From NCBI RefSeq assembly GCF_028209885.1, contig NZ_JAQLEM010000006.1:28183-92182 (forward strand): a stretch of 64,000 nt of DNA, written 5' to 3'. The DNA comes from Collinsella aerofaciens (GTDB lineage: Bacteria > Actinomycetota > Coriobacteriia > Coriobacteriales > Coriobacteriaceae). The notes below the pieces were generated by a model. The model did no database searches. It saw only the letters and a program-made list of their open reading frames with translations, and was not told where the DNA came from. Made by a program: the position numbers and the translations under genes. Of this stretch, positions 41,754 through 49,529 are shown in pieces; positions within the stretch are counted from its first letter, which is position 1; each line of letters begins with the position of its first letter.

Positions 41754-41839
41754 CCAAGTGCCGCAGATTGCCGTGAAAGAGGAGCGTCGCGTACTTTGGT
41801 ACGAGAGCGACGGTTTGAACGGCAAGGTGCGGTGCTTGG
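41754..41839. repeat. Structured hairpin element, copy 1
   Basis: A long imperfect hairpin. Outer arms CCAAGTGCCGCA / TGCGGTGCTTGG and TTGCCGT / ACGGCAA enclose an apical module (41771-41824) with GAAAGAGGAGCG, a CGTAC / GTACG helix and GAGCGACGGTTTGA. The apical module recurs at 49454-49508. It lies directly after the guaB stop; function unknown. Confidence 0.75.
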
Positions 41840-41848
41840 GAAAGCCGC

Positions 41849-43360
41849 TTAGCGGTAGCTGACGCTTTGCTGGGAGTCCTTCACGACAACGTCGTGGGCG
41901 CCGCCTTCGACGATGGAGGTGGAGCTGACCAGCGTTAGGCGTGCCTTTTCCTGGAGCTCGGGGATCGAGAGGGCGCCGCAGTTGCACATCGTGGACTTAA
42001 CCTTGTAGAGCGTGCCGCCCACGCCGTCCTTGAGGGATCCGGCGTACGGGACGTAGGAGTCGACGCCCTCGACGAAGCTGAGCTTCGCGGCGCCGCCCAG
42101 GTCGTAGCGCTGCCAGTTGCGGGCACGCGCAGAACCCTCGCCCCAGTACTCCTTCATGTACTGACCGTTGACGTTGACGCGCTCGGTCGGGCTCTCGTCA
42201 AAGCGAGCGAAGTAGCGACCCAGCATCATAAAGTCGGCACCCATGGCAAGGGCGAGCGTCATGTGGTAGTCGTAGACGATACCGCCGTCAGAGCACACGG
42301 GCACGTAAACGCCGGTCTCCTCGTAGTACTCGTCGCGAGCGCGGCAGACGTCGATCAGTGCGGTGGCCTGGCCACGGCCGATACCCTTGGTCTCGCGGGT
42401 GATGCAGATGGAGCCGCCGCCGATACCGACCTTGATGAAGTCGGCGCCGCAGTCTGCCAGGAAGCGGAAGCCCTCGGCGTCGACGACGTTACCGGCACCG
42501 ACCTTGACGTCCTCGCCGTAGTTGGCGCGGATCCACTCGATGGTGCGCTTCTGCCACTCGCTGAAGCCCTCGGAGGAATCAATGCACAGGACATCGGCAC
42601 CGGCCTCGACGAGCAGGGGCACGCGCTCGGCATAGTCGCGGGTGTTAATACCGGCGCCGACCATGTAGCGCTTGTCGCCGTCGAGCAGCTCGTTGGGGTT
42701 GGTCTTGTGGCTGTCGTAGTCCTTGCGGAAGACGATGCCCATCAGGTGATCGTAGTCGTCGACGATGGGCAGGGCGTTGAGCTTATTGTCCCAGATGACG
42801 TCATTGGCAACCTTGAGGCTGATGTTCTTGTCGCCCACGATGAGCTGCTCACGCGGGGTCATGAACTCGGAGACCTTCGTCTGATGTTCATCGCGGCTGG
42901 GGCGATAATCACGGCTGGTGACGATGCCCAGGAGCTTACCCTTGGGAGTGCCGTCGTCGGTGACCGGCATGGTGGAGTGACCGGTCTTCTCCTTGAGCTC
43001 GATGACCTGCTCCATAGTCATGTCGGGGGTCAGCGTGGAATCGGACTGAACGAAGCCAGCCTTGTGATCCTTGACGGCCTTGACCATAGCGGCCTCGGAC
43101 TCGGCGCTCTGAGAACCGTAAATGAAGGACAGGCCACCCTCGGTAGCGAGCGCGACGCCCATATCGACGCCCGAGACGGACTGCATGATGGCGGAAACCA
43201 TGGGGATGTTCAGGGTGATTGCCGGCTTCTCACCGCGCTTAAAGCGGGTCAGCGGCGTCTTAAGAGAGACGTTGTTGGGGATGCACTGCGAGGACGAGTA
43301 ACCAGGGACCAGCAGATACTCCGAAAACGTGTGGGACTCACCGGGAAAGAACGTAGCCAT
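41849..43360 (-). CDS. guaB: Inosine-5'-monophosphate dehydrogenase
   Basis: Oxidises IMP to XMP, the committed step to GMP. 503 residues in a TIM barrel with two CBS domains inserted (about 95-220: STMPVTDDGTPKGKLLGIVTSRDY and NALPIVDDYDHLMGIVFRKDY). The catalytic loop is GIGGGSICITRETKGIGRGQ, with the nucleophilic Cys; the SICITRE form differs slightly from the common SICTTR. ADFMMLGRYFAR and the flap follow. The ATG at 43360 has AAAGGAG just upstream. Monocistronic with its own promoter. Confidence 0.95.
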   Translation of the reverse strand: MATFFPGESHTFSEYLLVPGYSSSQCIPNNVSLKTPLTRFKRGEKPAITLNIPMVSAIMQSVSGVDMGVALATEGGLSFIYGSQSAESEAAMVKAVKDHKAGFVQSDSTLTPDMTMEQVIELKEKTGHSTMPVTDDGTPKGKLLGIVTSRDYRPSRDEHQTKVSEFMTPREQLIVGDKNISLKVANDVIWDNKLNALPIVDDYDHLMGIVFRKDYDSHKTNPNELLDGDKRYMVGAGINTRDYAERVPLLVEAGADVLCIDSSEGFSEWQKRTIEWIRANYGEDVKVGAGNVVDAEGFRFLADCGADFIKVGIGGGSICITRETKGIGRGQATALIDVCRARDEYYEETGVYVPVCSDGGIVYDYHMTLALAMGADFMMLGRYFARFDESPTERVNVNGQYMKEYWGEGSARARNWQRYDLGGAAKLSFVEGVDSYVPYAGSLKDGVGGTLYKVKSTMCNCGALSIPELQEKARLTLVSSTSIVEGGAHDVVVKDSQQSVSYR

Positions 43361-43439
43361 GTTTCTCCTTTTTCCATGCGACCGGTCGGCTGCAGGCCTC
43401 GTAGGACCCAGCCCAACCTTGGGCGCCCAATACTGGGGA

Positions 43440-43468
43440 AGTATCTTAACGCACTTTGACTGCTACAA
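43440..43468 (-). promoter_or_regulatory. Promoter of guaB
   Basis: On the minus strand -35 TTGTAG (43468-43463), 17-nt spacer, -10 GATACT (43445-43440). A -10-like TACAAT (43464-43469) for the divergent winged-helix gene overlaps the -35 element on the other strand. Confidence 0.55.
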
Positions 43469-43553
43469 TGCATGATTTAAGAAGAGCACACGAGGGTTTG
43501 ACGCAGGCTTTGCGTTTGCCCAGCAAATACTTTAGCGGGGAGACGTGGAGCGT

Positions 43554-43898
43554 ATGGAGTACAAGACGACGGCAAAGTTGGTCATTCAAGCGTGCGACAA
43601 GGATCTGCCGGGCGTGTTCGGCCACGGCTGCGTCTTGCTGCTGCAGGGTATCGCCCGCGAGCACTCGCTCAACCGCGCCGCCAAGAGCATGGGCATGGCG
43701 TATTCCAAGGCATGGCGCATTGTGAACGAGGCAGAAGGTCAGCTGGGCTGCAAGCTCATCGAGCGCGACGGCGCCCGCGGGTCCACCCTGACCCCCGCCG
43801 GCGAGCGAGCCATAGCGGTCTACGAGGAGCTGCAGGCCGACATCAACAACGTCATTGCCACCAAAGCAAACGACCTCATCGCCAGCATCAAAGAGTAG
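43554..43898 (+). CDS. ModE/LysR-type winged helix-turn-helix protein
   Basis: A 114-residue stand-alone winged-helix DNA-binding protein of the ModE N-terminal type. GIAREHSLNRAAKSMGMAYS is the recognition helix-turn-helix, followed by KAWRIVNEAEGQLGCKLIERDGA and a TLTPAGERAI wing, typical of ModE and LysR. There is no molybdate-binding (TOBE) domain, so the ligand, if any, is unknown. The start is uncertain: ATG 43554 or GTG 43545, with GGGGAG at 43537-43542. Divergent from guaB. Confidence 0.8.
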   Translation: MEYKTTAKLVIQACDKDLPGVFGHGCVLLLQGIAREHSLNRAAKSMGMAYSKAWRIVNEAEGQLGCKLIERDGARGSTLTPAGERAIAVYEELQADINNVIATKANDLIASIKE

Positions 43899-43941
43899 CT
43901 AATTTGGGACGGGGCTTTATAGCTACGCAACCCCTTCTTAT

Positions 43942-48241: not shown

Positions 48242-48253
48242 GTTTCATATGTC

Positions 48254-48267
48254 TGTAATCGTTTTCA
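48254..48267. promoter_or_regulatory. LacI-family operator (distal) upstream of scrA
   Basis: Second exact copy of minus-strand TGAAAACGATTACA. The 26-bp centre spacing places both on nearly the same DNA face. Confidence 0.75.
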
Positions 48268-48354
48268 TAGTAGGGTGAACGGTAGGAAATAACGGGCGAA
48301 TGGTAGTTTTGAGACAAACATAAGGGCTCAGAGGCAGGCAGACGTGCCCAAAAT

Positions 48355-49335
48355 CTAGACATTCATAAGCTGATGGCCGAGTTTGAGCGTCTTTAGACCG
48401 CTCTCCCCCTCCACGCCATCGAGCGTGTTGAGCAACATATTGGTCGCCTCGACGCCACTGGTCAGGTAGCCATAATGCACGGTGGGAATACCGCCCGTCA
48501 GCGCGCGCAAAAACGCGTTGTCGCCAAAACCGCTTACGCGATGCATGCCCTCGCCCACGCCGCGAACCTCATCGATGGCACGAAGCGCGCCCGCCGCCAT
48601 GGTATCGGTCGCGCACGCGATAAACGAAACATCGGGAGCGACGGAAAGCAGTTCACGTGCTGCACCATAGCCTGAGTCGAGCGTAAACGAGCCCAGGCGA
48701 ATCAAGGCGGCATCGAGCGGGTTACCCGCGGCGCGCAAGCCGGCCTCAAAACCGCGACGGCGGTCATAACCGGCCGCGCGGTCCTCTTCGGTAACACCGA
48801 TGTAGGCGATTTTGCCCTCAGCACGCTTCGCGAGCGCCTGACCCAGCTCGAAAGCGGCCTCGAAATCATCGTGATAAACACACGCCGCGCCCTCGACGTT
48901 TTGACCAATGACCACAAGGGGTACGCGACAAGACTCAATCGCTCGACGGTGCTCGCCGGTGATCATGGTTGCCACCAGCACGATGCCGTCGACCGGGTGG
49001 TTTTGGAATAAATCGAGATATTCGAGCTCGCGATCGGAGACGTTGTCGGTATTGGCAAGCAACATCTGGTACCCGCGGCGGCCAAGCACCTGCCCGATGC
49101 CCGCCGTAATGCGGCTCACCGACTCGGAATTAATCTTAGGCACGATGACGCCGATGAGCTTGGTGGAGCCGGTACGCAGCGCGCGAGCCTGGCTGGACCG
49201 CACGTATCCGGTCAGCTCAATCGCCTGCTTAATGCGCTCGGCCTTGTCCGCCGAGATATACCCACCGTTGAGGTAGCGCGAGACGGCGGCGCTCGAAACG
49301 CCGGCCAGCTCGGCCACATCTTTCATCTTTACCAC
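48355..49335 (-). CDS. LacI family transcriptional repressor of the sucrose genes
   Basis: 326 residues. The N-terminal helix-turn-helix reads MKDVAELAGVSSAAVSRYLNGGYIS with a hinge helix SSQARALRTGSTKLIGVIVP, then a periplasmic-binding-protein-like sugar domain (VDGIVLVATMI, IAYIGVTEEDRAAGYDRRRGFE, FIACATDTMAAGALRAI). I start it at GTG 49335, preceded by GGGGG, giving MVKMKDVAEL; ATG 49326 is an alternative. It lies upstream of scrA-scrB on the same strand and has a similar operator in its own promoter. Confidence 0.9.
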   Translation of the reverse strand: MVKMKDVAELAGVSSAAVSRYLNGGYISADKAERIKQAIELTGYVRSSQARALRTGSTKLIGVIVPKINSESVSRITAGIGQVLGRRGYQMLLANTDNVSDRELEYLDLFQNHPVDGIVLVATMITGEHRRAIESCRVPLVVIGQNVEGAACVYHDDFEAAFELGQALAKRAEGKIAYIGVTEEDRAAGYDRRRGFEAGLRAAGNPLDAALIRLGSFTLDSGYGAARELLSVAPDVSFIACATDTMAAGALRAIDEVRGVGEGMHRVSGFGDNAFLRALTGGIPTVHYGYLTSGVEATNMLLNTLDGVEGESGLKTLKLGHQLMNV

Positions 49336-49350
49336 GAGCACCCCCGTCGT

Positions 49351-49364
49351 TGAAATCGCTTTCA
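49351..49364. promoter_or_regulatory. LacI-type operator upstream of the lacI-family gene
   Basis: TGAAATCGCTTTCA, near-palindromic and similar to the scrA operators; it lies just downstream of a -10-like TATTAT (minus strand 49372-49367). Suggests autorepression. Confidence 0.6.
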
Positions 49365-49429
49365 CCATAATACCCGCGAACGCGCTTAACCAATCAACTC
49401 GCCCATCCAGGTCGAGCAAACGTCAGCGA

Positions 49430-49529
49430 GCGGGCAGCTGCCGTGGCGAGGTGCCGCGAAAGAGGAGCGAAGCGTACTTTATGTACGCGAGCGACGGTTT
49501 GAGCGGCAGATCGTCCGGCAGATGCCCGC
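49430..49529. repeat. Structured hairpin element, copy 2
   Basis: A long interrupted hairpin: GCGGGCA / TGCCCGC, TGCCG / CGGCA, CGA / TCG and TGCCGC / GCGGCA outer pairs, then the apical module 49454-49508 with GAAAGAGGAGCG, GCGTAC / GTACGC and GAGCGACGGTTTGA. Its module is roughly 87% identical to copy 1. The base pair GCCGC / GCGGC here replaces GCCGT / ACGGC there, a compensatory change. It lies between the lacI-family gene and the end of the Pel operon. Confidence 0.8.

What the first reader, a model, noticed from the sequence alone, without database searches (positions are those of the whole stretch)
41754..49529. A two-copy structured element with compensatory base changes
Copies at 41754-41839 and 49430-49529 share an apical module of about 55 nt (GAAAGAGGAGCG, then a CGTAC/GTACG helix, then GAGCGACGGTTTGA). 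The flanking sequence differs, yet each copy builds its own long outer stem. At the base of the module GCCGT/ACGGC in copy 1 is GCCGC/GCGGC in copy 2, a paired change that preserves the helix. That pattern indicates selection on a folded RNA or DNA hairpin, not a simple repeat. I know of no named family for it; it could be a small RNA, a mobile hairpin or a 3'-end mRNA element. Both copies lie at gene 3' ends or boundaries.
Basis: seen in the sequence. Interest (0 to 1): 0.78.

Follow-up and report, generated by a model that had tools for sequence, protein, structure and literature searches.

The report
Dispersed covarying hairpins at gene ends
The two look-alike hairpins belong to a large family of structured repeats that sits just after the stop codons of ordinary genes in one order of gut bacteria, where it most likely acts in the messenger RNA between genes; it resembles the known REP and ERIC repeats but is longer and built differently.

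Summary
Both copies are real, fold far better than shuffles (z -7.9 and -6.6), and show the paired change described. They belong to a large family: a covariance model from 32 copies finds up to 34 matches per Collinsella genome and 30 in a single-contig genome whose length I recall as that of Eggerthella lenta DSM 2243. At E up to 1e-5, 157 of 396 Coriobacteriia genomes match, all but one in a single order; of 296 genomes across the phylum 14 match, all in that order. Covariation is very strong: 34 of 34 pairs show two-sided changes. No Rfam family matches. Copies sit just after stop codons, mostly antisense to that gene, often with the next gene close behind (pheS-pheT), and differ between strains. 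They lack a U-tract and were not found beside RAYT-like transposases. Best reading: a new, unusually long REP/ERIC-like family of transcribed intercistronic hairpins that shape mRNA ends or decay. Function is inferred. The stronger fold lies on the strand opposite the mRNA, so a single-stranded DNA role remains open.

The parts
41744..41849 (+). copy 1, type A hairpin (106 nt); the strand given has the stronger fold, a guaB mRNA would carry the complement
   Evidence: R1 match 114.3 bits, E 1.1e-25; the copy itself was in the model
41775..41818 (+). apical core of copy 1, GAAAGAGGAGCG...AGCGACGGTTTGA
   Evidence: sequence
49427..49532 (+). copy 2, framed (type B/C) hairpin
   Evidence: R1 match 92.7 bits, E 2.3e-20; the copy itself was in the model
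49458..49502 (+). apical core of copy 2
   Evidence: sequence
49409..49429 (+). left frame AGGTCGAGCAAACGTCAGCGA, shared with other type B copies and in part with Eggerthella-like copies
   Evidence: by eye
49530..49541 (+). right frame GCAGCGTCGAGC
49543..49569 (+). second small palindrome (called H1 here)
49578..49635 (+). partial tandem duplicate of right arm, right frame and H1 (97% identical to 49515-49572)
41849..43360 (-). guaB (IMP dehydrogenase); its stop codon abuts copy 1
   Evidence: Pfam PF00478, E 3.3e-109
49637..50302 (-). DUF4956 gene whose 3' end faces copy 2
   Evidence: Pfam PF16316, E 1.2e-11
48355..49419 (-). LacI-family regulator, next gene in the same direction after copy 2 (frame from its first possible start; the LacI domain begins at residue 31, so the real start is probably near 49326)
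41657..41687 (-). inverted repeat with a weak T-rich tail downstream of guaB, kept in strains with and without copy 1

Best explanation
The two copies belong to an order-wide family of dispersed, imperfect long hairpins. Shown: multi-copy, covarying, placed just after stop codons, oriented relative to the upstream gene, mostly between closely spaced co-directional genes in the Eggerthella-like genome, present or absent at the same gene end in close relatives. Inferred: the repeat is transcribed as part of the mRNA of the upstream gene and works there as an intercistronic or 3'-UTR hairpin, as REP and ERIC repeats are thought to do: it blocks 3'-to-5' exonucleases or gives an RNase a cutting place, so that upstream and downstream cistrons decay separately. 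It spread as a non-autonomous repeat and is tolerated, perhaps kept, at gene ends.
For: Placement: in G071, 21 of 26 examined copies (of 30 found) have an antisense gene ending 7-67 nt from the model end, 6 at 22-23 nt and 12 at 38-43 nt; the other 5 overlap a called frame. In 15 of 20 of these the next same-direction gene starts within 80 nt. In G297, 29 of 33 have the antisense gene on that side, 25 within 50 nt. One G297 copy fills the gap between pheS and pheT. Named upstream genes have no common function: guaB, purH, pheS, hisF, cysS, amt, EttA, LepA and others. U-tract terminators downstream: G297 11 of 29, control 56 of 141; G071 1 of 25, control 27 of 106. Turnover: 11 of 30 genomes carry it at the guaB end; the guaB tree needs 5 changes, though its well-supported branches force only 1. 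Covariation.
Against: No expression data. The strand with the stronger fold is antisense to the gene: 31 of 31 representatives fold better on +, and the conserved tandem purine mismatches (loop II GA/GA in 74 of 82 matches) and tandem G.U exist as such only on that strand. Recent one-sided changes favour neither strand. In G297, 4 of 33 copies lie in the opposite sense. In G071, 29 of 30 copies keep one orientation to replication, more than gene direction predicts (p = 4e-4), which an mRNA role does not explain. The fewer U-tract terminators behind G071 copies would also fit a terminator.
Confidence: 0.5

Rival explanations
1. A non-autonomous mobile DNA hairpin, recognised as folded single-stranded DNA (+ strand) by an unidentified enzyme in trans; gene-end position reflects insertion preference or tolerance, with no RNA function.
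For: Near-identical inner parts at different loci (99% inner, 71% outer-arm identity, 14 of 26 G071 copies compared, chosen by me); presence and absence at the same gene end; the frame without the hairpin in L271 and L275; the framed unit inverted in L070; 29 of 30 G071 copies polar to replication; stable strand always + in 31 of 31; six G071 genes end in a stop codon inside the H1 loop.
Against: 0 of 30 fetched Y1-transposase loci carry the element and no consistent frame sits by them; other enzymes were not searched. No target-site duplication seen by eye; the guaB site is not a clean insertion. IS608-type elements are recalled to favour the lagging-strand template, whereas + lies on the leading-strand template.
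Confidence: 0.28
2. A transcription terminator or attenuator without a U-tract, perhaps Rho-assisted.
For: Strong GC-rich stem directly after the stop codon; G071 gene ends with the element have U-tract terminators less often (1 of 25) than other gene ends (27 of 106).
Against: No such deficit in G297 (11 of 29 against 56 of 141); 15 of 20 G071 copies lie close before a co-directional gene, and one lies between pheS and pheT; strains with and without it keep the same inverted repeat further down from guaB.
Confidence: 0.13
3. A small or antisense RNA encoded on the + strand.
For: Noncanonical pairs and tandem G.U favour +.
Against: No sigma-70-like promoter in 41400-41900 around copy 1; no shared upstream flank among type A copies (by eye); neighbouring genes mostly run the other way.
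Confidence: 0.06
4. The paired changes arise mainly by template switching in an imperfect palindrome, without selection on structure (not exclusive of the readings above).
For: One-sided changes are strand-symmetric (and 49 G.T to 44 A.C cells outside five wobble columns, summed).
Against: Such repair should also erase the mismatches, yet loop II is GA/GA in 74 of 82 matches and loop I is all-purine in 61 of 81, with 14 more in a shifted register.
Confidence: 0.15

Closest known systems
REP elements, GTAG and CGTC super-families (PMC3733652; abstract and passages seen)
   Same: Dispersed extragenic palindromes, mostly downstream of genes, between co-directional or convergent genes; a CGTC string recurs in the right frame here.
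   Different: REPs are given there as 20-40 bp with stems of 5-13 bp; this unit is 106 nt, about 190 with frame and H1, with conserved internal loops. That text has no occurrence of Collinsella, Eggerthella, Slackia, Coriobacter or Actinobacteria.
ERIC repeats (recalled, no call)
   Same: Imperfect palindrome of about 127 bp in transcribed intergenic DNA.
   Different: Enterobacterial; recalled as conserved in sequence rather than covarying from copy to copy.
Integron attC sites (recalled, no call)
   Same: Hairpin after a gene; stems vary and structure is kept; stable folded strand antisense to the gene and, as recalled, kept on the leading-strand template.
   Different: attC is conserved at its base and variable at its tip; here tip and loops are conserved and the base varies. 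The genes here are housekeeping genes.
Collinsella-1 RNA (RF01700; one table passage of PMC2864571 seen)
   Same: A structured RNA candidate listed for Actinobacteria and human gut.
   Different: It is in Rfam, yet the window copies do not match it at gathering or at E up to 1.

Membership tests
REP (GTAG/CGTC) | 20-40 bp palindrome with short stem | tested here: not met
   106-position model with 34 pairs
REP (GTAG/CGTC) | unpaired GTAG or CGTC tag at one end | tested here: inconclusive
   GCAGCGTCG recurs in the right frame of type B and G071 copies; type A copies lack it
REP (GTAG) / REPIN | repeats flank a RAYT gene | tested here: not met
   0 model matches in 30 fetched loci of 42 Y1_Tnp places; some of those loci come from genomes with few or no copies of the family
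REP | many extragenic copies | tested here: met
   14 of 39 relatives have 20-34 matches
MITE | terminal inverted repeats, target-site duplication, autonomous partner | tested here: inconclusive
   no duplication seen by eye at the guaB and DUF4956 ends; only Y1 transposases were searched as partner
intrinsic terminator | GC hairpin followed directly by a U-tract | tested here: not met
   no U-tract directly after the hairpin in the copies read (by eye); scan of 220 nt downstream
integron attC | R/L boxes and an IntI integrase | not tested
   no search for IntI or the boxes was made
any Rfam 15 family | match at gathering score | tested here: not met
   none over the copies (9 further loci). 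At E up to 1: SAM-IV 22.5 bits (gathering 38) over the right half of copy 2, a miRNA model below threshold beside it, and a miRNA model (31.6, gathering 91) on the leuS leader
structured RNA | covariation beyond shuffles and slid pairings | tested here: met
structured RNA | transcription of the folded strand | not testable with these tools
   no RNA-seq available

The most novel reading that the evidence does not exclude
A new class of structure-recognised element: the + strand hairpin, with tandem purine mismatches at fixed steps and freely covarying stems, is the substrate of an unidentified Coriobacteriales protein that reads shape rather than sequence (an attC-like or REP-like single-strand system without RAYT), held off the lagging-strand template and tied to gene ends across a whole order of gut bacteria.
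Probability: 0.2. Interest if true: 0.82.

Novelty: new variant of a known kind. Interest (0 to 1): 0.62.

Why it matters
It would give Collinsella, Eggerthella and their relatives, common human gut bacteria, their own large repeat family with a fixed place in gene-expression maps, and may explain many unassigned 3' ends. It offers a natural set of about 20-34 similar hairpins per genome in many strains, with presence and absence at the same gene, to test what gene-end hairpins do. The strand conflict (best fold opposite the mRNA) makes the RNA-or-DNA question directly testable.

Tried and rejected
RAYT/Y1 transposase partner: 30 fetched loci (of 42 places in 17 of 25 genomes) scanned with R1, 0 matches up to E 1; a string scan of the 30 and a fold scan of 10 found nothing consistent. 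Phage carriage: copy 2 region, no match; exact core pattern in IMG/VR, none. Plasmids: copy 2 region, one 900-kb Collinsella aerofaciens record. Terminator role: not supported overall, though the G071 numbers alone would fit it. Strand of function from G.T against A.C: undecided (cells are counted per sequence, not per event). Common function of upstream genes: none seen. A first crude gene caller gave wrong neighbours for some copies and was replaced by a codon-usage caller. Of the 30 upstream-gene clusters several are spurious short frames and were not named. For model R1 I used 30 of 31 representatives plus the two window copies; L081, which lacks part of the tip, was left out. Literature: seven answered searches listed no description of this family; the library holds open-licence papers only, and the supplementary tables of PMC8040213 (3161 intergenic candidates) could not be opened, so it may be listed there unnamed.
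Full report
Observation. Both copies are present as described. On the + strand they fold at -61.2 and -69.7 kcal/mol as RNA, z -7.85 and -6.59, and also well as DNA (z -7.79 and -6.26). The minus strands fold too, less strongly (z -5.70 and -4.23). In the window the covariance model finds copy 1 (114.3 bits), copy 2 (92.7 bits) and a weak reverse-strand echo of copy 1 at E up to 1.

Family. The exact core pattern occurs in 21 of 296 Coriobacteriia genomes. 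A scan of named species genomes gave 107 stretches; the 80 printed all carry Collinsella in their titles. From the loci then held I drew 94 distinct extended copies out of 146 instances with full flanks, picked 31 representatives and aligned 30 of them with the two window copies. Model R1 (106 positions, 34 pairs) finds matches at E up to 0.001 in 25 of 39 relatives; 14 of the 39 have 20-34 matches. At most 101 to 150 candidates per genome were scored there, so counts are lower bounds, and they include a few double-strand matches: G297 has 34 matches at 33 places, G167 25 at 21 places. Class-wide at E up to 1e-5: 157 of 396 genomes, all but G036 (5.9e-7) in one order (9 candidates per genome). 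Phylum-wide: 14 of 296, all in that order (13 candidates per genome, stricter filters). Tandem pairs and triples about 100-130 nt apart occur in G160, G025, G121 and G198.

Anatomy. Type A (copy 1): basal arm GGGTTTTCC...GGAAAGCC; tandem U.G/G.U in GGTGCC/GGTGCC; a variable but paired triplet; internal loop I (all four bases purine in 61 of 81 matches, 14 more in a shifted register); helix TTGCCNN/NNGGCAA; internal loop II, GA/GA in 74 of 82 matches; core; tip helix GCGTAC/GTACGC. Type B/C (copy 2) has the same core in a frame GTCAGCGA...GCAGCGTCGAGC plus a second palindrome, H1. In G071, whose single contig of 3,632,260 bp I recall as the length of Eggerthella lenta DSM 2243, the frame reads GTCAGCGAG-hairpin-CGCAGCGTCG-H1, so the framed form is shared by two bacterial families (f1 and f5); the core differs there.

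Covariation. A2: 19 of 34 pairs with two-sided changes, score 0.371 against 0.133 shuffled and at most 0.130 when slid. A4: 34 of 34, 0.644 against 0.189 shuffled and at most 0.111 slid. Relatedness inflates the shuffle test, and A4 was fitted to the structure. Among 14 G071 copies that I chose from 26, ten pairs have inner parts at least 95% identical; in nine of these the outer arms are only 62-79% identical, and one pair shares outer arms (92%) with inner parts only 53% alike. This looks like exchange of apical segments between copies (inference).

Context. In the window both copies follow the stop codon of a minus-strand gene (guaB; a DUF4956 gene) and precede another minus-strand gene (leuS; a LacI-family regulator). 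With codon-usage gene calls, 21 of 26 examined copies in G071 (4 of its 30 had no context) lie 7-67 nt from the end of an antisense gene; 5 overlap a called frame. In G297, 29 of 33 have an antisense gene there and 4 follow a sense gene. In 15 of 20 G071 cases the next co-directional gene begins within 80 nt (overlapping and non-polar copies dropped). One G297 copy lies in the 165-nt gap between pheS and pheT. Six G071 genes end with a stop codon inside the H1 loop, so that the repeat encodes their last residues. The named upstream genes share no function.

Turnover. At guaB, 11 of 30 genomes have the element, L260 has what I read as a decayed remnant, and 18 lack it. Aerofaciens-like strains with and without it keep the same inverted repeat further down. 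The guaB tree needs 5 changes, though its well-supported branches alone force one. At the DUF4956 gene, of 12 rows 4 have the full element (window, L273, L276, L280), 2 have the frame without the hairpin (L271, L275), one has half a unit inverted (L277), 4 have none and one could not be read.

Terminators. A simple scan found a U-tract terminator within 220 nt downstream for 1 of 25 copies in G071 (control gene ends 27 of 106) and 11 of 29 in G297 (control 56 of 141). The first result alone would fit a terminator or an operon-internal position; the second shows no effect.

Replication. GC skew in 20 samples puts the switch of G071 between 1.70 and 1.96 Mb; three samples are near zero. With the switch set at 1.85 Mb the + strand lies on the leading-strand template in 29 of 30 places. 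Called genes are 253 of 358 leading; 29 of 30 is more than that predicts (p 4e-4). The one exception follows its gene, not the fork. In G297, with a noisier skew and boundaries that I set by eye, 27 of 33 agree, which gene bias nearly explains (p 0.05). Selection against a stable hairpin on the lagging-strand template is one explanation (inference).

Strand. All 31 folded representatives are more stable on +, and the noncanonical motifs favour +; but A.C and G.T exceptions are balanced (44 and 49 outside five wobble columns, summed; 19 and 17 among recent changes). The mRNA carries the other strand. This conflict is the main open point.

Known families. No Rfam match. REP, ERIC, MITE and attC comparisons are in the membership table; ERIC and attC facts are recalled. 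RAYT association was tested and not found. The papers seen in abstract or passages (PMC3733652, PMC6006769, PMC2864571, PMC8040213, PMC12306157) do not describe it in what I saw; other papers were seen as listings only.

Verdict. Real, widespread, and of the known kind of dispersed extragenic palindromes, but longer, with a conserved internal architecture and covarying arms: a new variant. An mRNA intercistronic role is the most likely function at about 0.5; the mobile single-strand DNA reading is the main rival.

Noticed in passing
window 41499-41622: A long near-perfect hairpin (32-nt arms, 94% complementary) in the leader of leuS. In related strains the outer arms differ as a whole yet stay complementary (for example L240 against L244) around a similar inner part: an RNA leader or another repeat of the same habit.
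   Followed up: partly
window 49515-49635: A tandem duplication (63-nt spacing) of right arm and H1 beside copy 2, also present in L280.
   Followed up: partly
L277, L070: The framed unit, or half of it, sits inverted upstream of the same LacI gene, so the unit can flip or be re-inserted.
   Followed up: partly
L162, L196 (G294); L159, L193, L201, L207 (G198): More distant copies in another family of the order have different cores.
   Followed up: no
L014 / L099: Two elements side by side with different apical hairpins.
   Followed up: no
NZ_OY725717.1: A 900-kb circular C. aerofaciens record filed as a plasmid has 7 places similar to copy 2 and carries genes such as map; it may be a piece of chromosome.
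   Followed up: no
L210-L212, L227, L239: Short IS200-type Y1 transposases (167-aa frames in G109 and G297, 204 in G177), four copies in G109, beside longer RAYT-like single genes in the same genus.
   Followed up: no
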